64,000 bases of DNA from Streptomonospora salina (lineage in GTDB: Bacteria; Actinomycetota; Actinomycetes; Streptosporangiales; Streptosporangiaceae): the NCBI RefSeq assembly GCF_014204715.1, contig NZ_JACHLY010000002.1:124001-188000 (forward strand), read 5' to 3'. The notes under the pieces were generated by a model. That model searched no databases. It saw nothing but the letters and a program-made list of their open reading frames with translations, and was not told the DNA's origin. This document shows, piece after piece, positions 1 through 22,852 of the stretch. The position numbers and the translations under genes are program-made. Every line of letters starts with the position of its first letter. Positions within the stretch are counted from its first letter, which is position 1.

Positions 1-56
1 GCGCGGGTCGGGTGCGGGCGCCTCAGCCGGGTCGGCACCCGCAGAGTCGGTTTCAT
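1..56 (-). CDS. 5' end of a further tetronate-cassette gene (cut by window edge)
   Basis: An ATG at 56 overlaps the stop of the preceding acyltransferase gene as ATGA, the same coupling used throughout this operon. Only 18 codons (MKPTLRVPTRLRRPHPTR) lie in the window, too few to identify a fold. In the agglomerin and abyssomicin clusters the gene after the E2-type acyltransferase encodes the alpha/beta-hydrolase-like enzyme that eliminates acetate to form the exocyclic methylidene (Agg5/AbyA5). That identity is inferred here from position only. Confidence 0.4.
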   Translation of the reverse strand, partial: MKPTLRVPTRLRRPHPTR

Positions 57-823
57 ACCAGGTCACGACAGTCCTCCAGAGTGTGTGTGATATCGGCGAG
101 GACGTCGGCGGCTACCGCTCCGTCGATCACGCGGTGGTCGAAGGTGAGGCTCAGGCGCATGGTCGGCACGATCGCCACGGCGCCGTCCTCGGCGCGCGGC
201 AGGTCGCGGACGCGTCCCACACCCAGGGTCACCGCGGTGCCGCCGTAGGAGTGGAACCCGTCGACCGGGCGGTGGCCCAGGCTGGAGACGGCGAGTGTGC
301 CCATGAAGCGGGGCCGGGCTCGTAGCCGGGACAGCGCCAGGCGGAAACCGAGCGCGCCGAGGGCGAAGGGCGCGCGCATGAGCGCGCGCGCTGCCCCGGC
401 TTCGGGCAGGTCGGCGGCGTCGGTGTCGCGCAACCGGTCCACGGTCCGCTGAAGTTCGGGCAGCCGTTGGCTACCGACGTCGCGGACGGGGGCGGTGATC
501 ACCACGCGGGTGCCGTCCAGGCGTTTGTCCAGGGCGAGCTTGACGTCGACGGTGGGGTAGCGGGCGACGCGGGGGCGCAGCCGCCCGACGACGGCGGCGT
601 TGGCCTCGGGGTGGCGCGCCAGGGCGCGTGCTCCGGCGAGCATGACGTAGCTGACCACGGAGGTCCGGACCGGAGCTCTGTCGCGGTGGTCCAGCACGGC
701 GCGCATGTCGACCTCGGTGTCGATGTGGACGGGGCAGGCCTGGCGGGCGAACGACAGGAAGTGCAGGGTATGGCGCCGCTGCGGGTCGAGGGGCCCCACG
801 CGGGCCCGGGCGGGAAGCGCCAT
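53..823 (-). CDS. 2-oxoacid dehydrogenase E2-type acyltransferase, catalytic domain only (Agg4/AbyA4-like)
   Basis: A 256-residue protein made of the catalytic domain of dihydrolipoyl acyltransferases, without the lipoyl and E1/E3-binding domains of true E2 subunits. The C-terminal motif FDHRVIDGAVAADVL contains the catalytic His (about residue 230), Asp 234 and Gly 235. It lies directly after the FkbH/ACP pair, with its ATG at 823 two bases from the ACP stop. In agglomerin biosynthesis a protein of this kind (Agg4) acetylates the primary hydroxyl of the tetronate intermediate before elimination. The fold is clear from the motif; the acetyl-transfer role is inferred from operon order. Confidence 0.8.
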   Translation of the reverse strand: MALPARARVGPLDPQRRHTLHFLSFARQACPVHIDTEVDMRAVLDHRDRAPVRTSVVSYVMLAGARALARHPEANAAVVGRLRPRVARYPTVDVKLALDKRLDGTRVVITAPVRDVGSQRLPELQRTVDRLRDTDAADLPEAGAARALMRAPFALGALGFRLALSRLRARPRFMGTLAVSSLGHRPVDGFHSYGGTAVTLGVGRVRDLPRAEDGAVAIVPTMRLSLTFDHRVIDGAVAADVLADITHTLEDCRDLV

Positions 824-824
824 C

Positions 825-1064
825 TCAGGCGGCGCGGCCGTCGCCGGCCGCCAGGTCGAAGAAGTCGGCGAGGGTGCGGGCCTGCAGGGCAGCGGAGACG
901 TCGAGCGCCCGGCCGGTCTCGCGCTCCACCGCGGCGATGAGCCGTACCAGGTGGACCGAGTCCCAGCCGTCGAGGCGGTCGAACTCGACGTCGAGGTGCT
1001 CTGGCGCCAGGGCGAGCGCCAGTTCGGTGTCGATGAGCCGGAGCAGATCGTCGCGGGAGTTCAC
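825..1064 (-). CDS. Acyl carrier protein for the glyceryl unit (Agg2/AbyA3-like)
   Basis: A 79-residue stand-alone carrier protein. The phosphopantetheine site is the Ser in DGWDSVHLV (about residue 36). The GTG start at 1064 overlaps the stop of the FkbH-like gene as GTGA, so the two are translationally coupled. In tetronate clusters the FkbH-like enzyme loads a D-1,3-bisphosphoglycerate-derived glyceryl group onto this ACP, which then donates the C3 unit of the ring. The assignment rests on the DSV motif and strict cassette synteny. Confidence 0.85.
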   Translation of the reverse strand: MNSRDDLLRLIDTELALALAPEHLDVEFDRLDGWDSVHLVRLIAAVERETGRALDVSAALQARTLADFFDLAAGDGRAA

Positions 1065-3040
1065 GGTGCTGTGCCTTTCGCGAGGGACATGGTCAGCCGG
1101 ATGTGGTCGGGGTGGTCCGGCAGGGGATCCGGGGCGCCGCCGTCGGTTCCGCGCAGGCGGTGCAGGAAGGTCCGGGTGGCGGGAGCGCCGTCGGCGCTGT
1201 CCGGGGCGGCGAGGTCCTCCCGGGCGGTGAAGCCGTGGTCGGTGTAGAAAGACGCGAAGCGCCCGTTGCGGCCGCTGGGTCGGTAGCGTCCGGCGACCTC
1301 GGCGCATCCGTGTTCGCGGGCGTGAACGAGCAGATGCCGCAGGCATGCCGTTTCGATGCCGCGGTCGAACACCCGGCAGCTCAGCAGCATGTTGTCGACG
1401 GTGAGGCGTTCGCCCTCGACGCGGGCGAAGACGGCGCCGACCACACCGTGCTCGCCGAAGCGGTCGCGGGAGCGCACGGCCGCGACCAGTTGGGCGGGAT
1501 CGGCGATGCGGTCGCGGACTTCGGCGTCGCCGAGCCGCTCGGTGGTGAGGTTGAACTGGTTGGTGCGCTGGGTGAGCTGGGCCAGGCGCGGCACCGCTTC
1601 GTCGGCGGGGCGCACCAACTCGACCTGGACGCCGAGGTGGCGCAGGTAGTCGTCGGTGGATCCGGTCGACCGGCGCAGCTCCGCGCGGCGGGATTCGCTG
1701 CGGTAGCGTTCCCGGCGCGCTCGGTCGTCGTCGGTCGTCTCCAGAGTGCGGAACCAGGCTCCTTCCAGGAGCCGCCGCGGGTGCGTCGCCGGGTCGCCGC
1801 CGACGTCCACCACCTCGACGTCGGGTAGCAGGTCGCGCATCGCGCCGATCTCGGTGGCGGTGTCGTCGACGAACACGAAGGCGTCGCGGCCCAGGCCCAG
1901 CACGCGGGCGATCTCGGTGACGTTTTCGGGCTTGGGGCGGCGGTTGGCTGCTACGGCCACGAAGTCTTCGCGCCGCAGCACCATCTCGGGGTGCTCGGCC
2001 AGAACCTGTTCGACGGGCCCTGACTCGTTGCGACTGCACACGGTCAGCAGAACGCCCTGGGCGGAAATCTGGGCCAGGACCTGCTGAAACTCCTGGAAAG
2101 CGACGCCCCGCGACCCGCCGGCCGCTTCGATGCCTTCGGGGCCGTCCTCGCCGAGCACCCCGCCCCAGAGCGTTCCGTCCAGGTCCAGCGCGAGGGCCTT
2201 CTTGGCGCACCCGCTCAGCGCGCGCACGGTGGCGGCGACCTCACCCGCGTAGGCGGACAGGAACCCGGTTCCCAGGCGCACCTGGGCGTAGCAGGCGAGC
2301 CGGTCGTCGTGCAGCGGTCCGGTCTCGGCGAGGATGGGGTCGGTGTCGACGACGACGGTGGCGGGCCCTGCTTCGGCCAGGCGCAGCAGTTCGGTGTTGA
2401 ACTCGCGCCAGGCGATGCCGAGGCGGGTTCGGGAACGGATGTCGACGAGCTGGTCGGCCAGGCGCGCGGGCAACGGCAGCGTGTTCAGAACCAGCGTGGA
2501 GCCGGGGGCTTCGCGCTGGCGGGCCGCCAGGTCCCGGATGCGTCCGAGCAGGTCGCCGAGGGCGGCCTCGACGTCGGCGACACTCCAGGGCGCGGCCAGT
2601 TCTTCGGCTACGGCGTGAGCGTCGAGCAGCAGCAGGCGCAGCCGGGCGCTCGGGCCGGCCCCGTCGGGCGGTTGCGACCACGCCAGGCGGGAGTAGTCGC
2701 GGGTGTAGGGGATCGAGCGGGCCCGCATCGCCGTTCCGGAGCGGGCGAGGTGGGCGGCCAGCAGCGGCGGCAGCGCCGCCACGGTGCCGTTGGCGCACAC
2801 GTCGACGGACACGGCAGGGGTGTCGGGGTGGTGCTCGGCCACGTCGTCGGCGTCGATCCGGGCGAAGAGCTGGGCCACTCCGTCCAGCTCGCTCACGGGG
2901 ATGCGGCGCACCAGGTCGGTCGCGGTTGCGAACGAGCGCGCCAGGTCTCCTGCGCGGTGCAGCTCGCGCAGCCGCTCGGCGGGTCCGGCCGCGCTGGCGG
3001 TGTCGGCGGTTCCGATCGCGGTGTCGGCCACGGGGATCAC
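1061..3040 (-). CDS. FkbH-like HAD-superfamily glyceryl-ACP synthase
   Basis: About 659 residues starting at the GTG at 3040, which overlaps the FabH-like gene as GTGA; an in-frame GTG at 3031 is an alternative start. The HAD core begins near residue 280, with motif I ALDLDGTLWGGVLGEDG (Asp 286 and 288), then VCSRNES and a motif around FVDDTATE. The C-terminal third has a GNAT-like look (RTNQFNLTTERL). The long N-terminal part is usual for FkbH proteins of tetronate clusters (Agg1, AbyA2, RkE type). These convert 1,3-bisphosphoglycerate to glyceryl-S-ACP with loss of phosphate. The ACP partner lies immediately downstream. Confidence 0.88.
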   Translation of the reverse strand: MIPVADTAIGTADTASAAGPAERLRELHRAGDLARSFATATDLVRRIPVSELDGVAQLFARIDADDVAEHHPDTPAVSVDVCANGTVAALPPLLAAHLARSGTAMRARSIPYTRDYSRLAWSQPPDGAGPSARLRLLLLDAHAVAEELAAPWSVADVEAALGDLLGRIRDLAARQREAPGSTLVLNTLPLPARLADQLVDIRSRTRLGIAWREFNTELLRLAEAGPATVVVDTDPILAETGPLHDDRLACYAQVRLGTGFLSAYAGEVAATVRALSGCAKKALALDLDGTLWGGVLGEDGPEGIEAAGGSRGVAFQEFQQVLAQISAQGVLLTVCSRNESGPVEQVLAEHPEMVLRREDFVAVAANRRPKPENVTEIARVLGLGRDAFVFVDDTATEIGAMRDLLPDVEVVDVGGDPATHPRRLLEGAWFRTLETTDDDRARRERYRSESRRAELRRSTGSTDDYLRHLGVQVELVRPADEAVPRLAQLTQRTNQFNLTTERLGDAEVRDRIADPAQLVAAVRSRDRFGEHGVVGAVFARVEGERLTVDNMLLSCRVFDRGIETACLRHLLVHAREHGCAEVAGRYRPSGRNGRFASFYTDHGFTAREDLAAPDSADGAPATRTFLHRLRGTDGGAPDPLPDHPDHIRLTMSLAKGTAP

Positions 3041-4071
3041 TCCTCGCGTTCCAGCGCGAATCCGGCTTTGAGCCACTTGCTCGACTCCACCGCGATTCCC
3101 ACGACGGTGCCGACGGGCTCCTCCCGGCGCAGCATGTCGTCCAGTTGGAGGAAGGGCAGGGCGTTGGCGTTGTTTCCCGTCTGTGCGACGCAGCTGACCT
3201 CGCGTGCCGCAGGCAGGGCCAGGCGCCGGGTGATGCGGGGCGTCATGCTTCCCGACAGCTGCGGCGGCAGCAGGTGGCCGACGTCCTCGGCGCGCCAACC
3301 GGTGGAGTCCAGAAGCTGCCACAGGATCTCGGCGGCCATCTCGGGGACGCGCTCTTCGATGGCTTTGTAGTCCTCGGAGAACGCGGGCTCACCGGAGTCG
3401 CGGTCGGCCTGGCCGAACCAGCGCACCGTCTGGCCGGGCGGTTTGCCCGCCCCGGTGAACCGGTTGAGGATCGCGCGCATCCGCAGGTCGCCCGGTCGGG
3501 GGGCGGAGGTGAGCACTGCAGCGCCGGCGCCGTCGCCGAAGAGCATGTAGTTGACCAGTTCCGAGGAGCCGATCTCGCCGGGGGAACGGCCGGTGACGCA
3601 GTGCTTGACGCAGGTGTCGGCTCCGATCACCAGGCCGTTGGTGTGTTCGGGCAGCGTCAGCAGGCGCTCGGCCAGGCTCAGCGCCTGGACGGCTCCCGCA
3701 CAGCCCGACTGGACCTGGTAGGTGGGGATGTGCTCGGCCGCGAGGCGGTCGGCGACGTGGTTGACGGTGGCGGGCATGAGCTCGTCGGGCGTGGCGGTGC
3801 CCATCACGATGAAGTCCAGGTCGCCGGGGTCGGTATCGGCCGCCTGCAGTGCCTCCATCGCCGCGTCTGCAGCCATCTCGGCCAGGCTCTGAAACACCTC
3901 GCCGGTGGTGAGGTCCATGGCGAGGTAGCGCTGCTCGGTGCCGACGAACCGGGAGATCCACTCCGGAGCGACGCCGAGGAACTCCCCCAGCGCGGTGTTG
4001 TCGATCGGTTTCCCCGGAAGCGAGGACCCGGTGCCGGCGATCGCGGCGGCGTGTGGAGTCGCGTCAGCCAT
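3037..4071 (-). CDS. FabH-like ketosynthase III, putative tetronate-ring-forming enzyme (Agg3/AbyA1-like)
   Basis: A 344-residue KAS III homologue with ATG at 4071. The nucleophile is Cys 124 in QSGCAGAVQA, and the asparagine loop is TGNNANALPF (Asn about 300). Where typical FabH has PHQ with the catalytic His, this protein reads LLPPQLS, so the His position holds Pro (about residue 270). In RK-682 and agglomerin biosynthesis the FabH-like protein joins a beta-ketoacyl-ACP to glyceryl-ACP, forming the C-C and C-O bonds of the ring and releasing the chain. Its place as first gene of the KASIII-FkbH-ACP-E2 block supports that role. The PKS gene ends 152 bases upstream. Confidence 0.85.
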   Translation of the reverse strand: MADATPHAAAIAGTGSSLPGKPIDNTALGEFLGVAPEWISRFVGTEQRYLAMDLTTGEVFQSLAEMAADAAMEALQAADTDPGDLDFIVMGTATPDELMPATVNHVADRLAAEHIPTYQVQSGCAGAVQALSLAERLLTLPEHTNGLVIGADTCVKHCVTGRSPGEIGSSELVNYMLFGDGAGAAVLTSAPRPGDLRMRAILNRFTGAGKPPGQTVRWFGQADRDSGEPAFSEDYKAIEERVPEMAAEILWQLLDSTGWRAEDVGHLLPPQLSGSMTPRITRRLALPAAREVSCVAQTGNNANALPFLQLDDMLRREEPVGTVVGIAVESSKWLKAGFALEREE

Positions 4072-4223
4072 GTCTCGGTTCTCCAATGGTCGAGGGTGCT
4101 GAAATCCGGGCGCAGGAGCAGGCCGCGGAGTTCGGCCGCGGTCGGGGTGCGTGCTGCGACGGTGCCGCCCGGGCGGCTGCGGCCGCCGGGGTTGCGGTTT
4201 TGGCCGGGCGGGTCGTGGCCACC

Positions 4224-7200
4224 TCAGTCCCCCGCGCCGGTTCGGGGGCCGTCGAGACGGCCCTGCATGTACTCCGACAGCGTGCGCAGGCTGGCCGCGT
4301 TGGCCAGGATGTCCTCCACCGGCAGCGGACTCAGGTGCGGCCAGCGCCGCTCGACCTCGCCGAGTACGCGGGCCAGCACGATGGAGTCGAATCCCAGGTC
4401 TTCGAAGAGCAGGGCGTCCGGGTCGATGCCGTCGGCGGCGTAGCCGCCCGCGTCGGCCATCAGCTCGGCGATTTCGGCGTCCCGCGGTGCCGGTCCCGCG
4501 TGAGCACCGGTTTCGGGGACGCTCGGCGTGGCGGGCGGGGACGGCTCCGCCGGTCCGGGGCCGGTCCGGCGCGGCGCGGTTGCGGTCGACTGCACGGGCC
4601 CGTCGAACGCGGGGCGGTAGTCGTCGGCGACGGGGAAGCGGCGGTCGGTGGCGAACGCGTAGGGGAGCAGCCGCACCGTCCGGCGCTCGCGCGGCGGGGC
4701 GAGCTCCTCGGGGGCGACGGCGGCGCCGTCGGTGTAGAGGGCGGCCACGACCTCGGCGAACTCGGTGCCGTCGCTGCCCGGTCCCGGACACGGGCTGAGC
4801 GGTGCGGCTTCCAGGCCCGGCCGGATCCGTCGAAACAGGCCCGTCAGAACCGGTCGGGGGCCCGCCTCCACCAGGTGTGTGGGATCGGTTTCCAGCGCCG
4901 CCTCGGCTGCGTCGGCGAAGCGCACGGTGCTGCGGATCTGGTCGCGCCAGTAGGCGCCGTCGAGTTTGTCCTCGTCCAGGCGGCGTCCCAGCAGGGTGGA
5001 GTAGATCGGAATACTCGGCCGTGCGGGGACGACCTCGTCGGCGATGCGGCCGAACTCCTCCAGCACCGGGTCCGTGTGCGCGGAATGGAAGGCGTGGGAG
5101 ACCTCCAGCCACCGGTGTCCGATTCCCGCCGCGGCCAGGTCTGCGGCGTGACCGCGCAGGGCTTCGGGGTCGCCGGAGAGGACGCCGGAGCGAGGGGTGT
5201 TGACCGCGGCGACGTCGACGTGCGCGTCGTTCTCGGCGATACCGTCCAGTACGTCGGGCCCGGCGGAGACGTTGAGCATGGCGCCGCCGGGCAGGGAGCC
5301 GATGAGGCGCGCGCGGGCGGCGACGAGGCGGCACGCGTCGGGCAGGCTCAGCGCCTCGGCCACGCAGGCGGCGGCGTATTCGCCGATGCTGTGGCCGATC
5401 AGCCAGGCCGGTCGCATGCCGGTGCGCACGAGGGCGGCGGCCATGGCGTATTCGACGGCGAACAGCGCGGGCTGGGTGAGGGTGGTGTGGTGTACGTCGT
5501 CGCCGCCGTCAGCCAGCGCGGCCCGTACGGATCGGCCCAGGTGGGGGTGCAGGTGCGCGTCCGCCTCGTCGAGGGCCTCCCGGTAGGGCGGGCACGTTTC
5601 GTAGAGGCGGTGCGCCATACCCGGGTACTGCGCGCCTTGGCCGGAGAACAGCATTCCCACCCGGGGACCGCGGGCCGAGCGCCGCCCCGTGGGCCGCTCC
5701 CCGTTCGCGGCAGCGCGCAGGGACGCGGAAAGGCGGTGGCGGTCGGGAGCCGCGGCGGCGAATCGGTGGCGCAGGCCGGCCTTGACGCGGTTGCTGGTCC
5801 ACGCGAGTCGGGCGGGCCGCTCGCCGCTGCGCTGGACCCAGTCGGCCATTTCGCCCAGGTTGCGGCGCAGCCCTTCGGCCGAGTCGGCCGACACGGTGAA
5901 CACGCCCACAGCCCGATCCGCGCCGGGGGCGGGGCGGCTGCCGCGGCGGCGGGTCGCGGGGGCGGATTGCAGGAGGGCATGGGCGTTGGTACCGCCCAGA
6001 CCGAAGCTGCTGACCGCGGCGACGGTGTCGCCCGCGAGCCGCTGGGGGGCACGCAGCAACCGCAGTCCCGCGGCTTCCAAGTTCAGTTCCGGGTTCTGCG
6101 ATTCGGCGTAGCGGCTGGGCGGTACGACCCGGCGTCTCAGGGCCAGTGCCGCCTTGGCGACTCCGGCAAGACCCGCCGCGCCTTCGCAATGGCCGACGTT
6201 GCCCTTGACCGAGCCGAACGCGCAAGGGCTCGTGCGGCCGCCGTAGTGGGCGCCCAGCGCGCGCACCTCGATCATGTCGCCGAGCAGGGTTCCCGTGCCG
6301 TGGCCTTCGATGAAGCCGACCTCGTGCGGGTCGACGCCGGCGCGGCGGTACGTTTCGGCCAGGACCCGCTCCTGAGCCCACCGGTTGGGTGCCGTCAGCC
6401 CGTTGCTTCGGCCGTCGTGGTTGACCGCGCTGCCCCGCACGACCGCATAGATCGGCGCGTCCTCGGCCAGGGCGTCGGAGAGCCGGCGCAGCACGAGCAC
6501 GGCCACTCCTTCGGAGCGGCCGATGCCGTCGGCGTCGGCGCTGAAGGGTTTGCACCGCCCGTCCGGGGCGGAGAGGCCGGCTTGGGCGTAGAACAGGTGG
6601 GAGGTCGGCACCAGGATGATGTTCACGCCGGCGGCGACGGCCGTGTCGCATTCCCCCAGCCGCAGTGCGCCGCAGGCGGTGTGCAGCGCGACCAGTGAGG
6701 ACGAGCACGCGGTGTCGACGGCTTGGCTGGGTCCGGTGAAGTCGAACTGGTAGGAGAGGCGGTTGGCGGTCATGTAGTAGCCGTTGCCCGAGGCGGCCTG
6801 GGCGGTGATGTTGGGGTAGTCGGTCAGGTGCAGCTGGGCCCACTCGTTGCCCATCACTCCGACGTAGACGCCGGTGCGCGAGCCGGCCATCGCCCCCGGG
6901 TCGCGCCCGCTGTCTTCCAGGGCGCACCACGTGCTCTGCAGCAGCCGGCGCTGCTGCGGGTCGAGCTGTGCGGCTTCGGCGGGCGAAACGCCGAAGAAGG
7001 CGTTGTCGAAGGAGGAGATGTCGGCGAGGAACCCGCCTTCGGAGGTGTTCATCCGGGCCGCGTCGCCGCGCTCGCGGGTGAACTCCTCGGCCGGCCACCG
7101 ATCGGGCGGGACGGGGCCGATGCCGTCGCCCGAGGACATCAGCAGGTCGAAGAAGGCGTCCTTGCCTTCGGCTCCGGGAAAGCGGACGTCCATGCCCACG

Positions 7201-7226
7201 AGGGCGATCGGCTCCGGGGCGCTCAT
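4224..7226 (-). CDS. Single-module type I polyketide synthase, KS-AT-ACP
   Basis: A 1000-residue protein. The KS (about residues 5-430) has the active site DTACSSS (Cys 174) and histidines in EGHGTGT (309) and GNVGHCEG (346). The AT (about 520-830) has GQGAQYPGM, GHSIGEYAA (Ser 613) and HAFHS near 711, a malonyl-type signature. The C-terminal ACP has LGFDSIVLA (Ser about 948). There is no KR, DH, ER or TE, so a single pass would yield an unreduced beta-ketoacyl-ACP without hydrolytic release. That is the substrate a tetronate-forming FabH needs. The ATG at 7226 overlaps the upstream ACP stop (ATGA). Iterative use cannot be excluded. Confidence 0.92.
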   Translation of the reverse strand: MSAPEPIALVGMDVRFPGAEGKDAFFDLLMSSGDGIGPVPPDRWPAEEFTRERGDAARMNTSEGGFLADISSFDNAFFGVSPAEAAQLDPQQRRLLQSTWCALEDSGRDPGAMAGSRTGVYVGVMGNEWAQLHLTDYPNITAQAASGNGYYMTANRLSYQFDFTGPSQAVDTACSSSLVALHTACGALRLGECDTAVAAGVNIILVPTSHLFYAQAGLSAPDGRCKPFSADADGIGRSEGVAVLVLRRLSDALAEDAPIYAVVRGSAVNHDGRSNGLTAPNRWAQERVLAETYRRAGVDPHEVGFIEGHGTGTLLGDMIEVRALGAHYGGRTSPCAFGSVKGNVGHCEGAAGLAGVAKAALALRRRVVPPSRYAESQNPELNLEAAGLRLLRAPQRLAGDTVAAVSSFGLGGTNAHALLQSAPATRRRGSRPAPGADRAVGVFTVSADSAEGLRRNLGEMADWVQRSGERPARLAWTSNRVKAGLRHRFAAAAPDRHRLSASLRAAANGERPTGRRSARGPRVGMLFSGQGAQYPGMAHRLYETCPPYREALDEADAHLHPHLGRSVRAALADGGDDVHHTTLTQPALFAVEYAMAAALVRTGMRPAWLIGHSIGEYAAACVAEALSLPDACRLVAARARLIGSLPGGAMLNVSAGPDVLDGIAENDAHVDVAAVNTPRSGVLSGDPEALRGHAADLAAAGIGHRWLEVSHAFHSAHTDPVLEEFGRIADEVVPARPSIPIYSTLLGRRLDEDKLDGAYWRDQIRSTVRFADAAEAALETDPTHLVEAGPRPVLTGLFRRIRPGLEAAPLSPCPGPGSDGTEFAEVVAALYTDGAAVAPEELAPPRERRTVRLLPYAFATDRRFPVADDYRPAFDGPVQSTATAPRRTGPGPAEPSPPATPSVPETGAHAGPAPRDAEIAELMADAGGYAADGIDPDALLFEDLGFDSIVLARVLGEVERRWPHLSPLPVEDILANAASLRTLSEYMQGRLDGPRTGAGD

Positions 7227-7504
7227 CGGGCGTCCTCGGCCGGGGTGTCCAAGCACGCGTGCAGGTAGCCGGCAATGGCGCGCGCGGTCGGGTAGTCCCA
7301 GGCCAGGGTCGGGTCGACTTCGAGGTCGTAGACGTCCTCGATGTCGCCGACGAGGGTGACCGCGTAGACGGAGTCCATGCCCAGCTCGGCCAGGGGCGTT
7401 TCCGGGGCGATGTCGTCCTCGGTGCATCGGAGGTAGAACGCGAGGCGGCCTAGGAGCCACAACTCGATATCGGATATCTCGGGTACGCCCGAGTCAGCGG
7501 TCAT
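7223..7504 (-). CDS. Acyl carrier protein for the starter acyl chain
   Basis: A 93-residue ACP with LGMDSVYAVTLVGDI (Ser about 45). It overlaps the PKS start by 4 bases and follows the two dehydrogenase-like genes. In ramoplanin and enduracidin-type pathways a free ACP receives the acyl-adenylate from the fatty acyl-AMP ligase and carries it during dehydrogenation. The same role is inferred here, with the acyl chain then passed to the KS of the next gene product. Confidence 0.85.
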   Translation of the reverse strand: MTADSGVPEISDIELWLLGRLAFYLRCTEDDIAPETPLAELGMDSVYAVTLVGDIEDVYDLEVDPTLAWDYPTARAIAGYLHACLDTPAEDAR

Positions 7505-7543
7505 GATCCGGTTTCCTTCCTCGGCTTCGGGTCGCAGGTCTCA

Positions 7544-8632
7544 TCACAGCAGCGCGCCGCGCTCGGCGGTGAAGCTCCGGGCGCGGGTGAATCGATCGAC
7601 GAGCTCGGCGAAGAGCGCATCGCGCCGCTCCTCGGGAACGCCCGCCGCTACGGCGGTGTCGGATGCGGCGGCGGCACAGCCCTGTGCCAGCAGCTCGGCG
7701 CGGGCGCGCACGTCCCGGTCGGCCTGAGGGTCGCCGACCCACAGGGGGGCGTCGCCGGAGTCGTGCCGACGGTGCAAGAGAGCCCGACCGAACGCGGTGC
7801 CGCGCGCGGGGTCCAGGTCGGGGAGCTCGGTGTAGACGCGCGCGAAGGAGGCGTGGCGGCCCTCGGTGAGGTAGGAGCGCGCGCCCAGGACCACGCCGAG
7901 GTCCTCCACCACCGGCCACAGCGCGGTCGATGCCGCCGCCTGCGCGGCGTCGGCCAGGGCCGCCGCCTCGGCGCCGGGGGCACCGCCGGCCTGTTCGGTG
8001 CGGGCGCGTGCCGCCGCGCGGACCAGGGCGTCGGCGCGCAGCAGGCGGCCGAAGGCGTCGGCGAGGGTGGCGCGCGCGTGCGGCAGGTCGGTGACCGTGC
8101 CCTGGTAGAGGCGGCGGTCGAGCGCGAAGTCCAGGGTCAGGCGCAGGGCGGTGTCCACGGCGGCCAGGGTCATTCCGGCGCGCAGCAGCCCGGCGGCTCC
8201 CCCCGGAGGGTCGGGGGGAGCCGCCACCCGCGGAGGCCGGGCGGTGCGCAGGGTCCGCACCGCCTGCTCGCGACGCTCGCGGGGCGCGGTTTCGTCCCAC
8301 AGCACGGGGGCCAGCGCCAGCGCGGTTCCGGCGAACGCGCGGCCGGTGGCGGGGTCGCGGCGGTAGACGGGCCGCAGTTGCGTGATCAGCTCCTCCACCC
8401 CGTCGAATTCGCCGCCCAACACGCGGGGGGCGAACAGGGCGACGCGCTCGTCGGGGGTGAGCACGCCGTCCCAGCCCGGTGGCGGTGCGCCGGGCTCGGC
8501 GGAGGCGAGTGCGGCACGGCTCAACGGATGGTCCGGATCGCCCGGCGGGCCCAGCATGAGCTCCAGGCGCGGCGGTCCGGCTCCCGCGTCGGCAGCGGGC
8601 ACGGCGTGCGGATCGGTCGTCGGTGCGTTCAC
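7544..8632 (-). CDS. Acyl-CoA dehydrogenase-like protein, short divergent subunit
   Basis: A 362-residue protein starting at GTG 8632, coupled as GTGA to the longer dehydrogenase gene. Resemblance to acyl-CoA dehydrogenases is mostly in the C-terminal helical domain (RRLYQGTVTDLPHARATLAD, equivalent to the R-x-x-x-G...LAD helix). The N-terminal part is Pro/Ala-rich, and no IYEGT-type catalytic glutamate can be placed. It may be the non-catalytic partner in a heteromeric dehydrogenase, as in actinobacterial FadE pairs. This is inference from gene pairing and degeneracy. Substrate is presumably the acyl chain on the adjacent ACP. Confidence 0.65.
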   Translation of the reverse strand: MNAPTTDPHAVPAADAGAGPPRLELMLGPPGDPDHPLSRAALASAEPGAPPPGWDGVLTPDERVALFAPRVLGGEFDGVEELITQLRPVYRRDPATGRAFAGTALALAPVLWDETAPRERREQAVRTLRTARPPRVAAPPDPPGGAAGLLRAGMTLAAVDTALRLTLDFALDRRLYQGTVTDLPHARATLADAFGRLLRADALVRAAARARTEQAGGAPGAEAAALADAAQAAASTALWPVVEDLGVVLGARSYLTEGRHASFARVYTELPDLDPARGTAFGRALLHRRHDSGDAPLWVGDPQADRDVRARAELLAQGCAAAASDTAVAAGVPEERRDALFAELVDRFTRARSFTAERGALL

Positions 8633-10362
8633 TCGTCCTCCACTCGACAGTCCAGCAGCGAGAAGAGCCGGCCGCCGGCGAACTGGTCCCACATCGCGCC
8701 GAGGAGCGCGTCGTCGGCGCCCGTGTCGGCGGGCGCGGGGGCGCCGATCCGCTCCAGGACCCGGGCGAGGGCGGCGCGCACCCACAGCGCGTCGGCCCAC
8801 AGCGGCTCGGCGAGATCGACGCGGCCGCCCGCGCCCGCTGCCGCCCCGGACGCGTTGTCCAGCCACAGCCACAGGCACGCCGCGCCTGCGAAGCACAGCG
8901 CGTAGCGGCGGGCGAGGTCGAACGCCTCGGGCGGGGCGTGCAGCGCGACCGGGCGATAGGCGGCCAGCTCGGCGCGTACACGCTCGTGGACCCGCCCCAG
9001 ACGCCGCGCCGCGGGCGCGAGCGCGGCCGCCGCCCCGCCCCCGCCCGCGGCCCGTTCGACCAGCGTCGGCAGGGCCTGCACCACGCTACTGCCGTGCAGG
9101 GCGGCCAGGCTGATGCGCTCCCAGGAGATGGACGGGGCCTCGGTGCCCAGGTCGAATACCGCCTCGGCGTCGGGACTGACACGCCCTTTGCTCTCGGCGC
9201 GGGACAGCGTGGGGAACTGGTTGATCAGGGCGTGCCGGTTGATCACGCTGTTTCCGTCGAACAGTCCCACGATGCGGTTGTCGCGGCGGGCTTTGGCGAA
9301 GGCGCGGGCGGTGGGCTCGGACGGGGCGCACAGGTCGACGACCGGCTCCAGCGCGGCGACGGCCGCCTCGGTGGTGTGCGGAACCGCGAACTTCGCCACG
9401 GCGGAGGTGATGCTGGACTCGCCGGGCAGCACGGTGACGGCGCGCGCGGCGGCGATCGACACCGCTTCGCCGAGGAGGTGGTCGGCGTAGGAGCGGGCCA
9501 GTGCCCGGCGAGGCCCGGGGGCATCGGGCGGGCCCTGCGCGCGGGCGCTTTCGTGGACGGCGTGGGCGGCCGAACGCAGCGCGCCGTCTCCGGCACCCAG
9601 GGACAGCGCGGTGCACAGCGTCCGGGTCAGCTGCAGTCCTTTGAGTACGGTTTCCGCGCCGCGGTCGGGAGATCCGATCGCCGCGGCGGCGCCGAGGTGT
9701 GCGCCGTCGAAGGCGATACCGCTGATGTCGGCGCCGCGGATACCGTAGGTGCGCACCTTCGGCAGACATCGGAACGTTCCGGGGGCGAGATCGGCCTTGT
9801 CCACGAGGAAGACGCCGAAGCCGCGCGGTCCGGCTTCGGCCGCGGTGCGCGCCAGCACGCACACCAGACCGCTGTCCGTGGCGCCGTTGATGAGCCACTT
9901 CTCGCCGTGGAGGGTGTAGCCCGAGCCGTCCCCGACTGCGGAGAGCTCACCGCTGAGCAGGTCGCTGCCGTGGGCGCGCTCGGTCAGCGCCCAGCAGATC
10001 CGCTCGCCCGAGGTCAGCCGCCGGGCCAGGCTCTGCGCCTGCTCGGGGCTGCCCTCCAACCACACCGACACCGCGCCGAGGAAGGTGCGGCCGTGGCCGA
10101 TGGCCAGTGTCAGGTCGCGCCGAGCCACGGCCCGCATCAGGTGCACGGCCTGGTCGATGCTGGTCAGCCGCCCACCGTGGGCCGTGGGCACCGCGTAGTC
10201 GGCCAGTCCCCATTCATCCAGCACGGCCGACGCCTCCCACGGGTAGGCCGCACGGTCGTCGTTGCCGCAGGCCGCGGCGTGGGACAGGGGAAAGGCGGGG
10301 TCGCGGGCCGGTCCCATGCGTGTTTCGAGGTCCTCGGCCAGGGCCAGCGGCGGGTAGCGCAT
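8629..10362 (-). CDS. Acyl-CoA/acyl-ACP dehydrogenase
   Basis: About 577 residues. The ATG at 10362 was chosen because GGAGG stands 6 bases upstream; an in-frame start at 10380 lacks one. FAD/substrate-binding features include CWALTERAHGSD, LHGEKWLINGATDSGL and a C-terminal RRDNRIVGLFDGNS. The last corresponds to the RDxxIxxIYEGTS catalytic segment of the family, so the usual Glu is replaced by Asp. A C-terminal extension of about 150 residues follows. Together with the ligase and ACP it probably introduces one or more double bonds into the starter chain. Position and chemistry parallel the ACAD pairs of ramoplanin and enduracidin clusters. Confidence 0.8.
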   Translation of the reverse strand: MRYPPLALAEDLETRMGPARDPAFPLSHAAACGNDDRAAYPWEASAVLDEWGLADYAVPTAHGGRLTSIDQAVHLMRAVARRDLTLAIGHGRTFLGAVSVWLEGSPEQAQSLARRLTSGERICWALTERAHGSDLLSGELSAVGDGSGYTLHGEKWLINGATDSGLVCVLARTAAEAGPRGFGVFLVDKADLAPGTFRCLPKVRTYGIRGADISGIAFDGAHLGAAAAIGSPDRGAETVLKGLQLTRTLCTALSLGAGDGALRSAAHAVHESARAQGPPDAPGPRRALARSYADHLLGEAVSIAAARAVTVLPGESSITSAVAKFAVPHTTEAAVAALEPVVDLCAPSEPTARAFAKARRDNRIVGLFDGNSVINRHALINQFPTLSRAESKGRVSPDAEAVFDLGTEAPSISWERISLAALHGSSVVQALPTLVERAAGGGGAAAALAPAARRLGRVHERVRAELAAYRPVALHAPPEAFDLARRYALCFAGAACLWLWLDNASGAAAGAGGRVDLAEPLWADALWVRAALARVLERIGAPAPADTGADDALLGAMWDQFAGGRLFSLLDCRVEDE

Positions 10363-10363
10363 C

Positions 10364-12127
10364 TCAGGCCTCCACTGCACCGGCGCGGGCCGCGGGCTCG
10401 GAGGTCCCCTGCGACCAGGCGTGCAGCACGCTCAGCGCCCCGCTGTCGTGCAGAGAGCGCGCGGCGCCGCGGCGCACTTTGCCACTGGTCGTACGCGGAA
10501 CCTGGGAGAAGGGGACGAGCACGACCCGGGCCGGGGTCAAGCGGTGGGCGGCGGCCAGAGCCGAGCGGATGCGGCGCGACGCCTCGTCGAGGGACGTCTC
10601 CCCCAGTGCGGTGGCCCGCACCTCCTGTACCACGACGACATCGTCGCCGAAGGGGCCGGTGCCGAAGACTGCGGAGGTTCCGCAGGCCCGGTCGGGCAGC
10701 ACCCGGCGGACGTCGGCCTCCAGGTCCTGGGGGTAGAGGTTGCGCCCGTTGAGGACCACGACCTCCTTCGCACGTCCGGTGACGAACAGTTCGCCGCCGC
10801 GCTGGAATCCCAGGTCGCCGGTACGAAGGAAGGGGCCCTCCCCCGCACCGGTGTAGGCGTGGAAGGTCTCGGCGGTGGAGCTGGGACGGCCGCTGTAGCC
10901 GTCCGCGACGCTAGGGCCGCGCACCCAGATCTCGCCGACGGCGCCGTCGGACCGGGGGTCGCCGGAGTCAGCGTCGACCACGCGCACGTCCAGGGAATCG
11001 GCTGCGCCGCAGCCGACGAGCCTGCGGGCCCCGCCGGACCCGGGCGCCGGCCGGAACTCGTCGCGTTCCAGGGCGTCGGCGTCGGCGTCGACGACGGTGG
11101 GTTCGCGGTGCGGCGAGGCGCAGGTGACCAGCAGGGTCGTCTCGGCCATGCCGTAGCAGGGGGTGAAGGTCGCGGGGGCGAAACCCACGCGGCCGAAGCG
11201 CTCGGTGAAGCCGTCGACGACCTCGGCCCGCACGAACTCGGCGCCGTTGAGCGCGACGCGCCAACTGGAGAGGTCCAAACCGTCGAGGTCCCGCTCGCCG
11301 ACGCGCCGCAGGCACAGTTCGTAGCCGAAGTTGGGCGCCACTGTATGGGTGGCGCGGTGGCGGGTGATCAGCTCCAGCCACCGGCGGGGGCGTTTGAGAA
11401 AGGCCATCGGGTCCAGCACCACACAGGGGAATCCGTGCTGGAAGGGGGTCAGCAGCAGCCCGATCAGCCCCATGTCGTGGTAATAGGGCAGCCACCCCAC
11501 GCCTGTCGATTCGGGACCGACTCCGGTGTGCCGGACGATGTCGCGATGGTTGTGGAGCAGGTTGGCCTGGGTGATGCGCACGCCTTTGGGTTCGCTGGTC
11601 GAACCCGAGGTGTACTGCAGCAGGGCCACGTCGTCGGGTCCCACCTCGGCGAGTTCTGCAGCCGGGGGGACGCTTTCGGCGGCGGTGTCGGTGGCCAGGC
11701 ATTCCACTCCCCGGGGAAGGCGGCCGTCCCGGATCCAGGAACCGAAGAAGCCGGCGTTGGCGTCGTCGGTGAGCACCGCACCCAGGTCGGGGGCATCGGC
11801 CGCGATCCGGGCGATGCGGTCGAGACTGTCGGGAGAGCGGTCCGGAAGGGGGGTGGGGACCGCCACGGCACCGGCGAAGAGGCAGCCGATGAAGGCGGGG
11901 AGGAAGTCCTGCGCCCCCGGGTAACTGAGCAGGACCGACCTGCCGGTGAGCCGGCGCTCCAGCAGCAGGAGTGCGACCGCGCGCGCCTTGCGGTCCAGCG
12001 CGGCGTAGTCGAGGACCGTGTCGTCGCCACCGCCGCGGTCGCGCCCGGCGAATACGAACCGCCCCGAGTCGCCGAAGACCGCCAGGCGGTCCTGCAGCAG
12101 TGCCGAGAAAGTCAGCTCTTCAGCCAC
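10364..12127 (-). CDS. Fatty acyl-AMP ligase (FAAL)
   Basis: About 587 residues starting at GTG 12127 with an AAAGGGA ribosome site. Adenylation motifs are LLQYTSGSTSEPKGV, YGMAETTLLV, FLRTGDLGF and a C-terminal PRTTSGKVRRG lysine. The segment GRAKEVVVLNGRNLYPQDLE is typical of FAALs, which adenylate fatty acids and pass them to an ACP rather than to CoA. As first gene of the leftward operon it would supply the starter acyl chain. The next gene begins on its stop side with only one base between them. Confidence 0.9.
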   Translation of the reverse strand: MAEELTFSALLQDRLAVFGDSGRFVFAGRDRGGGDDTVLDYAALDRKARAVALLLLERRLTGRSVLLSYPGAQDFLPAFIGCLFAGAVAVPTPLPDRSPDSLDRIARIAADAPDLGAVLTDDANAGFFGSWIRDGRLPRGVECLATDTAAESVPPAAELAEVGPDDVALLQYTSGSTSEPKGVRITQANLLHNHRDIVRHTGVGPESTGVGWLPYYHDMGLIGLLLTPFQHGFPCVVLDPMAFLKRPRRWLELITRHRATHTVAPNFGYELCLRRVGERDLDGLDLSSWRVALNGAEFVRAEVVDGFTERFGRVGFAPATFTPCYGMAETTLLVTCASPHREPTVVDADADALERDEFRPAPGSGGARRLVGCGAADSLDVRVVDADSGDPRSDGAVGEIWVRGPSVADGYSGRPSSTAETFHAYTGAGEGPFLRTGDLGFQRGGELFVTGRAKEVVVLNGRNLYPQDLEADVRRVLPDRACGTSAVFGTGPFGDDVVVVQEVRATALGETSLDEASRRIRSALAAAHRLTPARVVLVPFSQVPRTTSGKVRRGAARSLHDSGALSVLHAWSQGTSEPAARAGAVEA

Positions 12128-12433: not shown

Positions 12434-13096
12434 ATGGACGTCGCTGGGACGATAAATCCGCTGTCTGGTTTCAACGACTTCGTGCTGGGGCTGGACATGG
12501 CCTACGGCTACCTGTGCGTGGGACTCATGACCTTGTCGGAGTCAGCGGTTCTGGTCGGGTTCGTACTTCCGGGGGAAGTCTCGGTCGTGCTCGGCGGGGT
12601 TCTCGTCCAGCTCGGATCGGGCAGCCTTCCGCTGATGGTCGCGGTCGCGTTCGCCGGATCGTTCACCGGTGACACGATCGGCTTCGCCATCGGCCGCGCC
12701 GTGGGTCCGAGAGTACTGCGTACACGATTCGCCCGGCGCCGCGCGGAACGCATCGAGGCGGCACAGGAATTCATAGACAGAAAAGGCGTATGGGCGATCT
12801 TCCTGCTGCGCTGGACGGCGTTCTTCCGTTCGGCGGTTCCGATGGTCGCGGGAATGTCGCGGATGAGTCCGGCGCGCTTCCTTCTCGCCAACGCCGCGGG
12901 CGCGCTCGTGTGGGCGGCCGCCCTGGCCACGGCCGGTTATCTGTCCGGCCTGTCCTACGCCCATGTCACCGAGTGGATCATGCTCGTCCCGCTGGCGATC
13001 GTGGCCGCGGTGATCGCGCTCGTGTGCCTGCGGTTGCGCGCAGCCGGCGCCCGGCGCCGCGCGCGAACGCCTGCGTCCACCCGGAAACCGACCTGA
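12434..13096 (+). CDS. DedA-family membrane protein
   Basis: 220 residues with several hydrophobic segments. FVLPGEVSVVLGG and RWTAFFRSAVPMVAGMSRM correspond to the two conserved DedA motifs (re-entrant glycine/glutamate segment, and arginine-rich segment with VAG). DedA proteins are membrane transporters or scramblases; undecaprenyl-phosphate or phospholipid translocation is known for some members. The specific substrate here is unknown. A sulfotransferase gene follows 17 bases later and is probably co-transcribed. The tail is very Arg-rich. Confidence 0.85.
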   Translation: MDVAGTINPLSGFNDFVLGLDMAYGYLCVGLMTLSESAVLVGFVLPGEVSVVLGGVLVQLGSGSLPLMVAVAFAGSFTGDTIGFAIGRAVGPRVLRTRFARRRAERIEAAQEFIDRKGVWAIFLLRWTAFFRSAVPMVAGMSRMSPARFLLANAAGALVWAAALATAGYLSGLSYAHVTEWIMLVPLAIVAAVIALVCLRLRAAGARRRARTPASTRKPT

Positions 13097-13113: not shown

Positions 13114-14214
13114 GTGCCGGATACGACTCTCGTCTTGGGAACCGGACGCTGCGGCTCCACGATGCTTTCGCGCATCATGGTCCGCCACCCCGAGGTCCTC
13201 AGCCTCAGCGAGCTGTTCCGCTCGTTGGCACCCGACATCTTCCCGGAAGACACTCTGACCGGCGCCGAATTCTGGGAGCTGTTGAGTACGCCGCGCCCCA
13301 AGCCCAACGTCCTGGTACGCAACGGCATCCCGTCGCCGGAGTTCAGCTATCCTCTCGGCACCGGCGCCTTCACCGCCGATACGGGAATCCCGGCGATCTC
13401 TTTCATCACGCTGCCCCATCTCGGCGGCGACCCCGACCGGACGTACGAGCAGGTGCGCGAGCTCACCTGCGCCTGGCCGCGGCGCTCGGCCGCCGGGCAC
13501 TACCGCGCCCTGTTCGCCGCGCTGGCGCACCGGTGGCGGCGCACCGCGGTCTTCGAGCGGTCGGGGGCGTCGTTCATGTTCGCCGGCGACCTGGTCGCGG
13601 CTTTCCCCGACGCCCGGTTCATCCACCTCTACCGCGACGGTGTGGACTGCGCGCTGTCGATGAGCCGCCACCCCTCCTTCCGGCTCGTGTTCCGGACCCT
13701 TCAGATGCAGGGCGTCCTCGGGCACGATCCCTACGACGAGCCCGCGCCCGGCGACTCCGCGCGACTTCCGGAATCGCTGCGCCGCTACCTGCCCGCGGAG
13801 TTCGACGCCCGGGCGCTGATGGAGGAGCCCATCCCTCCCACGGTCTTCGCCGCCGCGTGGTCGTCGATGGTCGAGAACGCGGTCCCGCACCTGCGCGGGC
13901 TTGCCGCCGACCGGCTGCTGCACGTTCGCTACGAGGACGTGCTGAACGATCCCGACACCGAACTGGCGCGCATCGCCGGGTTCACCGGGATCGGCGCCGA
14001 CCCGCGATGGCTGGAGGGCGCGACCGCTCTCATCCGGCGCCGCGAGTCCGGCGCCGAAACGCTGGACCGGGCCGAACGCGACGAGCTGGAGCGCGCCTGC
14101 GAGCCCGGGCGCCGCGCCCTGGAGCAGATCGGGTTCGCCCCCGACGGCGGCACCGACCGCACCGGCGGGGATTCGGTACCCGCCCCGCCCTCCTCGGAGG
14201 TGCGGCCGAGCTGA
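13114..14214 (+). CDS. Sulfotransferase-family protein (PAPS-dependent type)
   Basis: 366 residues from a GTG with CAGGAG 7 bases upstream. The N-terminal LGTGRCGSTMLSRIM is the 5'-phosphosulfate-binding loop, and FIHLYRDGVDCALSMSRH is the 3'-phosphate-binding motif with Arg and Ser. RYEDVLNDPDTEL is another family-typical motif. It probably transfers sulfate from PAPS to a hydroxyl group of a small molecule or lipid. It lies beside the polyketide cluster but on the opposite strand, so a tailoring role is possible but unproven. Confidence 0.8.
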   Translation: MPDTTLVLGTGRCGSTMLSRIMVRHPEVLSLSELFRSLAPDIFPEDTLTGAEFWELLSTPRPKPNVLVRNGIPSPEFSYPLGTGAFTADTGIPAISFITLPHLGGDPDRTYEQVRELTCAWPRRSAAGHYRALFAALAHRWRRTAVFERSGASFMFAGDLVAAFPDARFIHLYRDGVDCALSMSRHPSFRLVFRTLQMQGVLGHDPYDEPAPGDSARLPESLRRYLPAEFDARALMEEPIPPTVFAAAWSSMVENAVPHLRGLAADRLLHVRYEDVLNDPDTELARIAGFTGIGADPRWLEGATALIRRRESGAETLDRAERDELERACEPGRRALEQIGFAPDGGTDRTGGDSVPAPPSSEVRPS

Positions 14215-22682: not shown

Positions 22683-22852
22683 ATGCGGCTTCGGTGCTGC
22701 GTGAGGAGTTCCCGCATCCGACGTCGCGACTTCCGACGCTGTGGTCGGCGTCGTACTTCGCCGCGTCAGTAGGCGCCGTCAGCGCCGACACCGTCCAGCG
22801 CCACATCGACACCCAATGGCAGCGCCCGCGGAAGAAGGGAGGGGAACAGTGA
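22676..22852 (+). pseudogene. tnpA: 3' remnant of an IS200-type (Y1) transposase gene
   Basis: The frame ending at 22852 encodes VLREEFPHPTSRLPTLW followed by SASYFAASVGAVSADTVQ and RHIDTQ. This is the C-terminal pattern of IS200 TnpA proteins (LREEFP...LWSxSYFxxSxG...VxxYIExQ). The HUH motif and preceding two thirds are absent. Its TGA overlaps the tnpB ATG (TGATG), as in intact elements. Confidence 0.65.

What the first reader, a model, noticed from the sequence alone, without database searches (positions are those of the whole stretch)
1..12127. Nearly complete tetronate biosynthetic cluster of an unusual make-up
The minus-strand block KASIII - FkbH - ACP - E2 acyltransferase - (next gene) has the content and order of the tetronate cassette of agglomerin (Agg1-5) and abyssomicin (AbyA1-A5). 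It is joined to FAAL - ACAD - ACAD - ACP - KS-AT-ACP. The PKS has no reductive or release domain, so the logical product is a beta-ketoacyl-ACP. FabH-like chemistry would release this as a 3-acyl tetronate, with acetylation and elimination giving a 5-methylidene. The combination with a dehydrogenase-bearing acyl-adenylate loading set suggests an unsaturated agglomerin-type product that I do not recognise as described.
Basis: partly seen in the sequence, partly recalled or inferred. Interest (0 to 1): 0.85.

Follow-up and report, generated by a model that had tools for sequence, protein, structure and literature searches.

The report
Fatty-acid-loaded tetronate biosynthesis gene island
A 20-kb block of genes on a second, smaller replicon of an actinobacterium very probably builds an acyl tetronate (the ring of several antibiotics) from a partly desaturated fatty acid; the ring-making part is of a known kind, while the fatty-acid-loaded version is shared by many bacteria and I found no product described for it.

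Summary
KASIII matches AbyA1, the tetronic acid condensing enzyme. The gene beyond the left edge is an AbyA5/Agg5-type dehydratase. FkbH groups with tetronate FkbHs, apart from checked methoxymalonyl-type controls. The cluster is complete and lies in an island of about 20.4 kb (about window -6228 to 14210), inserted between two genes that are neighbours in a same-genus genome; one other species has it nearly colinear. The island adds thioesterase, P450, flavin monooxygenase, SARP, sulfotransferase and DedA-like genes. Likely work: FAAL loads a fatty acid, ACAD1 makes it 2-enoyl, KS-AT-ACP adds one malonyl unit, KASIII joins it to glyceryl-ACP, A4/A5 make the 5-methylidene, the oxidases (perhaps the sulfotransferase) finish it. 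The make-up is not rare: 28 of 80 named KASIII loci carry FAAL plus ACAD, and the 38 FAAL-labelled KASIIIs placed in a tree fall in one clade. Peculiar to this lineage is an ACAD2 without middle domain and active-site segment, seen in the window and in 1 of 36 other tetronate-linked ACAD2s. No product was shown.

The parts
1..66 (-). 5' end of the A5 (AbyA5/Agg5-type) alpha/beta-hydrolase-fold dehydratase; the gene continues left of the window to -1067 (L006:16933-18066 -)
   Evidence: best PDB matches AbyA5 4ywf 8.5e-70 and 5no5 3.4e-69; GMSFG nucleophile motif
53..823 (-). A4: E2-type O-acyltransferase (Agg4/AbyA4-like), predicted to acetylate the 5-hydroxymethyl
   Evidence: PF00198 2.1e-21; HRVIDG motif at 230
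825..1064 (-). A3: discrete ACP, predicted carrier of the glyceryl unit
   Evidence: PF00550 2.2e-5, above cut-off; GWDS site
1061..3040 (-). A2: FkbH-type glyceryl-ACP synthase, 659 aa
   Evidence: TIGR01686 3.1e-85, above cut-off; groups with long tetronate FkbHs, apart from the 375-aa FkbHs of methoxymalonyl-type operons; DLDGT at 286
3037..4071 (-). A1: KASIII, tetronate condensing/releasing enzyme
   Evidence: 5by7 2.4e-93 by sequence; model pLDDT 89, Foldseek first hit 5by7 'AbyA1 - tetronic acid condensing enzyme', 46% identity; SGCAG and PPQL motifs, PPQL in 85 of 86 other tetronate KASIIIs
4224..7226 (-). single-module PKS KS-AT-ACP; AT of malonyl type by its HAFH motif (reading of the motif recalled)
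   Evidence: PF00109, PF02801, PF00698, PF00550; ACSSS, EGHGTGT, GHSIGE, HAFH, FDSI
7223..7504 (-). discrete ACP, predicted carrier of the starter acyl chain
   Evidence: PF00550 6.8e-14; LGMDS
7544..8632 (-). ACAD2: shortened type-2 acyl-ACP dehydrogenase homologue without middle domain and without the GHAG segment; probably not a catalyst on its own
   Evidence: PF00441 only; alignment; GHA segment in 35 of 36 other tetronate-linked type-2 ACADs, missing in G002; all-helical model, mean pLDDT 68; dN/dS 0.55
8629..10362 (-). ACAD1: type-1 acyl-ACP dehydrogenase with Asp at the usual catalytic Glu position
   Evidence: PF02770/PF02771; FDG aligned with YEG of 3pfd; Asp in that column in 37 of 37 other type-1 ACADs
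10364..12127 (-). FAAL: fatty acyl-AMP ligase, predicted to load the starter
   Evidence: PF00501 5.1e-54, PF23024 1.3e-6; fatty-acid--AMP ligase models among the best NCBIfam matches, none reaching its cut-off
12434..13096 (+). VTT/DedA-like membrane protein inside the island (role unknown)
   Evidence: PF09335 1e-23; lies within the insertion absent from G005
13177..14214 (+). Sulfotransfer_3 family sulfotransferase inside the island (possible tailoring enzyme)
   Evidence: PF13469 3.9e-16; among 5 same-genus genomes found only in G002, the one with the cluster; last gene before the right border

Best explanation
The block is a complete cluster for a 3-acyl-5-methylidene tetronate made from a fatty acid. 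Steps: (1) FAAL 10364-12127 adenylates a fatty acid and loads ACP 7223-7504; (2) ACAD1 8629-10362 desaturates the ACP-bound chain, most likely to the 2-enoyl level, while the shortened ACAD2 is at most a non-catalytic partner; (3) the KS-AT-ACP adds one malonyl unit without reduction, giving a 3-oxo-4-enoyl-ACP; (4) FkbH puts a glyceryl unit from 1,3-bisphosphoglycerate on ACP 825-1064; (5) KASIII makes the C-C and C-O bonds between the two and releases a 3-(2-enoyl)-5-hydroxymethyl tetronate; (6) A4 acetylates the primary hydroxyl and A5 eliminates acetate to the 5-methylidene; (7) the conserved FAD monooxygenase and P450, perhaps also the sulfotransferase, decorate it; TEII edits the carriers and the SARP regulates. 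Gene content and family membership are shown; the chemistry of steps 1-6 is carried over from characterised relatives; chain length, position of the double bond, step 7, regulation and any bioactivity are inferred.
For: KASIII to AbyA1; next gene to AbyA5; FkbH tree with checked controls; FAAL-type KASIII clade of 42 rows, SH-aLRT 98; the same core in G002, G322 and 28 of 80 named loci; motifs; steps 4-6 described for tetronomycin, RK-682, agglomerin and tetromadurin in PMC4979870 and PMC7489565 (passages); rotihibin, with FAAL-ACAD-ACAD-ACP, proposed to carry cis-2-decenoic acid (PMC8552735 passages), in a species whose genome holds a second FAAL/type-1/type-2/ACP set before a condensation domain; the insertion contains this set plus tailoring genes.
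Against: No metabolite or expression data. ACAD2 is degenerate, so desaturation may be less than in relatives. Type-2 ACADs occur without a type-1 ACAD in four other tetronate loci (L122, L135, L187, L188), so the division of labour between the types is unknown. FMO and P450 substrates are unknown. No sulfotransferase or VTT homologue was found among my gene calls of the 80 named loci, so these two may not belong to the pathway. Window KASIII has Ser where 70 of 85 relatives with the motif have Arg (PPQLSGRM); the effect is unknown.
Confidence: 0.75

Rival explanations
1. The cluster makes a saturated or little altered RK-682/agglomerin-like acyl tetronate: the ACADs are vestigial (ACAD2 already degenerating) and the oxidases act little or not at all.
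For: ACAD2 shortened and under weaker constraint; related FAAL loci without ACAD exist (L114, L120, L125, L133, L137).
Against: ACAD1 keeps its Asp and its LTERAHGSD segment and has dN/dS 0.28; P450 (0.15) and FMO (0.17) are among the most constrained genes.
Confidence: 0.15
2. Spirotetronate- or abyssomicin-like end product: the FAD enzyme is a PyrE3-type cyclase and the unsaturated chain reacts with the 5-methylidene in a [4+2] cycloaddition.
For: 5-methylidene genes present; the FAD enzyme has a weak match to PyrE3, 8.1e-12.
Against: Its best match by far is another flavin monooxygenase, 8uiu, 1.7e-40; one elongation module only; KASIII lies in the FAAL clade, apart from the rows of loci without FAAL; only one ACAD with its active-site segment; a double bond next to the ketone is badly placed to reach the exocyclic alkene (inference).
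Confidence: 0.05
3. FkbH and ACP supply methoxymalonyl-ACP, so the product is not a tetronate.
For: FkbH is shared by both kinds of pathway (PMC7489565 passages).
Against: FkbHs of methoxymalonyl-type operons (L138, L140; 375 aa; in L138 flanked by hydroxyacyl dehydrogenase, ACP, ACAD and O-methyltransferase) branch apart with full support; no hydroxyacyl dehydrogenase or O-methyltransferase match in the island; AbyA1- and AbyA5-type enzymes present.
Confidence: 0.01

Closest known systems
Agglomerin (Agg1-5, Pantoea agglomerans) and abyssomicin (AbyA1-A5) tetronate cassettes
   Same: KASIII, FkbH, ACP, E2 acyltransferase, hydrolase-fold dehydratase in the order of abyA1-A5 (PMC3625739 passages); AbyA1 and AbyA5 are the best solved-structure matches
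   Different: Abyssomicin is fed by a seven-module PKS. The agglomerin cluster has seven ORFs in 8,009 bp (PMC11350110 passages), too small for this loading set (inference). Here the chain comes from FAAL, ACADs, ACP and one PKS module, with P450, FMO and sulfotransferase genes added
RK-682 cluster of Streptomyces sp. 88-682, and the RK-682-like cluster 10 of Streptomyces sp. HM190
   Same: acyl tetronate pathway; the HM190 genome holds a FAAL-ACAD-ACAD-ACP-KS-AT-ACP-KASIII cluster of this family (L177; PMC7333363 passages)
   Different: RK-682 keeps the 5-hydroxymethyl (recalled; fits Agg4/Agg5 accepting it as substrate, PMC4979870 passage). Whether its cluster holds FAAL or ACADs could not be checked (paper not held)
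Rotihibin (RthH-I-J-K) FAAL-ACAD-ACAD-ACP acyl-loading set; ramoplanin's two ACADs by the rotihibin paper
   Same: same gene order (PMC8552735 passages); same type-1 (Asp) and type-2 (His) ACADs at about 361-364 kb of S. scabiei 87.22, which I take for RthI/J by gene order
   Different: those feed an NRPS; here the set feeds a PKS-tetronate line and ACAD2 is shortened
FAAL-loaded tetronate clusters of Prauserella endophytica (L127), Streptomyces sp. BK340 (L102), S. scabiei 87.22 (L112) and others
   Same: same core; L127 also has SARP, TEII, FMO and P450
   Different: full-length ACAD2; phosphopantetheinyl transferase gene in L112 and L127; no sulfotransferase or VTT homologue among the gene calls within the flanks held

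Membership tests
Five-gene tetronate (glycerate-utilisation) cassette, AbyA1-A5/Agg1-5 | AbyA1/RkD-type KASIII | tested here: met
   (AbyA1); RkD itself not available
Five-gene tetronate (glycerate-utilisation) cassette, AbyA1-A5/Agg1-5 | long FkbH of the tetronate group plus discrete ACP | tested here: met
Five-gene tetronate (glycerate-utilisation) cassette, AbyA1-A5/Agg1-5 | Agg4-type E2 acyltransferase with catalytic His motif | tested here: met
   57% identity to the homologue in Streptomyces abyssomicinicus L123; the PDB matches are ordinary E2 proteins, so no solved Agg4 relative was found
Five-gene tetronate (glycerate-utilisation) cassette, AbyA1-A5/Agg1-5 | Agg5/AbyA5-type dehydratase | tested here: met
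Five-gene tetronate (glycerate-utilisation) cassette, AbyA1-A5/Agg1-5 | tetronate formed in vitro or in vivo | not testable with these tools
   no wet-lab data
Rotihibin-type FAAL-ACAD-ACAD-ACP loading set | FAAL, type-1 ACAD and ACP in order | tested here: met
Rotihibin-type FAAL-ACAD-ACAD-ACP loading set | full-length type-2 ACAD with the His column | tested here: not met
   362 aa, no middle domain, no GHAG segment
Spirotetronate | multimodular type I PKS | tested here: not met
   one KS-AT-ACP only
Spirotetronate | [4+2] cyclase (AbyU, VstJ or PyrE3 type) | tested here: inconclusive
   FAD enzyme nearer to 8uiu than to PyrE3; AbyU and VstJ homologues were not searched for by sequence
Methoxymalonyl-ACP cassette | FkbH of that group with hydroxyacyl dehydrogenase, ACP, ACAD and O-methyltransferase | tested here: not met

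The most novel reading that the evidence does not exclude
The island makes an oxidised and sulfated 2-enoyl-5-methylidene tetronate, a structural class not known to me, and its desaturase is a complex in which ACAD1 works with a partner subunit that has lost the flavin-binding middle domain and the active-site segment. The Fic32-33 complex (8hk0, 346-aa chain), among the weak structural matches of ACAD2, might be the nearest precedent; I saw only its title.
Probability: 0.15. Interest if true: 0.65.

Novelty: new variant of a known kind. Interest (0 to 1): 0.45.

Why it matters
Spirotetronates and polyether tetronates need large modular PKSs. Here is a compact line (10 core genes, A5 to FAAL, about 13.2 kb) predicted to turn a fatty acid into a reactive enoyl-methylidene tetronate. 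It occurs from actinobacteria to Rouxiella, so the class can be tested by expressing one small cluster. The series of relatives (no ACAD, type 2 only, both types, both with a shortened type 2) makes the role of each ACAD directly testable, a point the rotihibin paper left as a suggestion (PMC8552735 passages).

Tried and rejected
Methoxymalonyl reading: rejected by the FkbH tree, whose control rows I first labelled by length and identity and later checked by Pfam for L138 (L140 by gene sizes only). Spirotetronate/[4+2] reading: not supported. 'Two active ACADs, hence a diene': weakened. I first took type-2 ACADs to be catalytically dead in general; the type-2-only tetronate loci (L122, L135, L187, L188) argue against that, so I claim it only for the shortened protein here. 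A first count of the GHA segment took in chance matches elsewhere in the chain; replace it. PDB look-up of window ACAD2 gave one weak match (E 0.52); its structure search gave only weak matches (best E 1.2e-3). Ten paper searches: no listed title or abstract start describes a FAAL-ACAD tetronate cluster; two searches returned no paper, (two PDB codes) only irrelevant ones, and only 30 of 131 papers were listed. Passages of six papers were read and of PMC6835275 (a sugar-pathway ACAD of lobophorin, not this kind). The library holds open-licence papers only; RK-682 (PMC2811812) was not held and the agglomerin paper (Kanchanabanca 2013) was seen only as a citation and through reviews. Megablast in plasmid records found only short pieces; one record with a good KASIII match has no annotation. 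Gene calls are from my own script, not a standard caller; its starts for FMO and SARP were too short and were corrected by eye, and it misses genes in lower-GC loci such as L156, which is therefore absent from the trees.
Full report
Place. The window is G000:C2:124001-188000; C2 is 510,128 bases, in a genome of 5.6 Mb in 3 contigs. I read 38 kb to its left and called genes with a codon-usage script. Positions left of the window are given as negative window coordinates (genome position = 124000 + window position).

Observation. Pfam and NCBIfam support FAAL, ACAD1, ACAD2, ACP, KS-AT-ACP, KASIII, FkbH, ACP and E2 acyltransferase on the minus strand from 12127 down to 53. The next gene (-1067 to 66) has AbyA5 as its best PDB match (8.5e-70). 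Further left lie a type II thioesterase (-1855 to -1064, minus) and, on the plus strand, a P450 (-3098 to -1902), an FAD monooxygenase (corrected start about -4344, end -3112) and a SARP regulator (corrected start about -5253, end -4507). To the right are a VTT/DedA-like protein (12434-13096) and a sulfotransferase (13177-14214). Active-site motifs looked for in FAAL, ACAD1, ACPs, KS, AT, KASIII, FkbH, A4, A5, TEII and P450 are present; how to read them is partly recalled.

Island. In same-genus genome G005 the LtrA gene and the SCO1 gene are neighbours, about 490 bases apart; here the same two genes flank 20.7 kb. Homology to G005 stops at about -6229 and resumes at about 14210, so the island is about 20.4 kb, from a 135-aa protein without Pfam match to the sulfotransferase. 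G002 holds the island in nearly the same order; it has an extra 109-aa ACP-like ORF between PKS and KASIII. Of 5 same-genus genomes searched, only G002 had the KASIII (E <= 1e-40), the A5 gene and the sulfotransferase (both E <= 1e-30). dN/dS between window and G002 is 0.15-0.39 for 14 of 16 island genes; the small ACP (0.73) and ACAD2 (0.55) are higher.

Tetronate test. KASIII: 5by7 by sequence (2.4e-93); the AlphaFold2 model (mean pLDDT 89) finds 5by7, titled 'AbyA1 - tetronic acid condensing enzyme', first at 44-46% identity, with FabH-type synthases next at 18-27% in the 50 rows listed. PPQL stands in 85 of 86 other tetronate KASIIIs (not matched in L172), where 2 of the 4 FabH-like outgroup rows show PHQAN and the other 2 matched neither. 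FkbH: in a tree of 53 rows the two 375-aa FkbHs (L138, L140) split off with full support. They lie in operons of methoxymalonyl type: in L138 hydroxyacyl dehydrogenase, ACP, ACAD, FkbH, O-methyltransferase, the set described in PMC7489565 (passages). Window and G002 sit in an 8-row set (SH-aLRT 96) of 7 FAAL+ACAD clusters and L128, which lies on a 9.7-kb contig. The FkbH tree does not make all FAAL+ACAD rows one clade (at least 4 changes are forced), and several rows have long branches.

Relatives. By tblastn, 28 of 80 hold FAAL and ACAD1 beside KASIII, 8 FAAL without ACAD1 (two of these, L122 and L135, have a type-2 ACAD) and 44 neither (two of these, L109 and L116, show a type-2 ACAD on short contigs). 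Flanks end at 10 kb, so these are lower bounds. Hosts of the 28 include Streptomyces, Kitasatospora, Streptacidiphilus, Prauserella, Actinokineospora and Rouxiella badensis. In a KASIII tree of 91 rows, 42 form one set (SH-aLRT 98; part of the printed tree was cut): all 31 FAAL+ACAD rows (28 loci plus window, G002, G322), 7 FAAL-only rows and 4 rows labelled 'neither' (L109, L116, L121, L128), none of which has its whole cluster on the DNA held. L156, an eighth FAAL-only locus, is not in the tree. FMO was found in 11 of the 28 loci, FMO with P450 in 6 of 28 (counted). No sulfotransferase or VTT homologue was hit by the called genes of the 80 loci.

ACADs. Two types recur. Type 1 has Asp where the solved relative 3pfd has the Glu of YEG: Asp in 37 of 37 other type-1 proteins (one unrelated 388-aa ACAD in L098 left out). 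Type 2 has His in that column in 39 of 42; the exceptions are G002 (Arg), L095 (Asp) and L101 (Cys). The GHA segment stands in 35 of the 36 type-2 proteins beside a tetronate KASIII, all but G002, and in none of the 6 others. Window ACAD2 lacks that segment and a middle domain of roughly 110 aa. L101, not beside a tetronate cassette, also has a short type 2 (375 aa). The window ACAD2 model is all-helical, mean pLDDT 68; its structural matches are weak (best 1.2e-3), mostly acyl-CoA dehydrogenases and relatives, with the 346-aa chain of the Fic32-33 complex second. S. scabiei 87.22 has two FAAL/type-1/type-2/ACP sets: the tetronate one (L112) and one at about 361-364 kb, followed by a condensation domain. 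By gene order I take the latter for RthH-K of rotihibin (PMC8552735, passages); locus tags were not checked. That paper proposes cis-2-decenoic acid as the acyl chain and a possibly non-essential second dehydrogenation. Hence my prediction of a 2-enoyl chain.

Mechanism. Glyceryl-ACP formation, KASIII-type acylation-Dieckmann ring closure and Agg4/Agg5 acetylation-elimination are described for other tetronates in PMC4979870, PMC7489565 and in part PMC3625739 (passages). I transfer them here by family membership. The FAD enzyme is nearest to 8uiu 'Flavin monooxygenase' (1.7e-40) and far from PyrE3 (8.1e-12); its substrate is open.

Novelty. Cassette: known. FAAL-ACAD loading joined to it: not found described in the ten paper searches, but the library is partial, and a cluster of HM190, whose genome has this type, was already linked to RK-682. 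I rate it a new variant of a known kind. The shortened ACAD2 and the sulfotransferase are the parts peculiar to this lineage among the loci examined.

Noticed in passing
L156 (Mycobacterium montefiorense, NZ_BFCH01000002.1): Tblastn matches to FAAL, KASIII, FkbH, ACP, A4, A5, FMO and TEII: a tetronate-type cluster in a mycobacterium. My gene caller failed there.
   Followed up: no
L185 (Methylosinus trichosporium OB3b plasmid pOB3b3): Annotated KASIII, HAD-IIIC, ACP, E2, FAD monooxygenase, alpha/beta hydrolase and type I PKS genes, near RHS and transposase genes: a tetronate-like cluster in a methanotroph.
   Followed up: partly
L186 (Pseudalkalibacillus hwajinpoensis plasmid unnamed1): Tetronate-like KASIII, HAD-IIIC, ACP, E2 genes in a Bacillota plasmid with discrete KS, SDR and dehydratase genes.
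   Followed up: partly
L187, L188 (Streptomyces plasmids): FAAL, one type-2 ACAD, ACP, PKS, KASIII, HAD-IIIC, ACP, phosphopantetheinyl transferase; no A4/A5 annotated nearby: a simpler relative, perhaps keeping the 5-hydroxymethyl.
   Followed up: partly
L084/L085 (G322): Same core with FMO fused to an SDR-like part, and at its right genes that look like nucleotide-sugar and glycosyltransferase genes (by eye) with two P450 matches: possibly a glycosylated relative.
   Followed up: partly
L082:15291-15620 (G002): Extra 109-aa ACP-like ORF between PKS and KASIII; in the window only 152 bases lie between these genes.
   Followed up: no
window 22852-24063: ORF whose start looks like a TnpB/IS605-type protein (by eye; no search run).
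   Followed up: no
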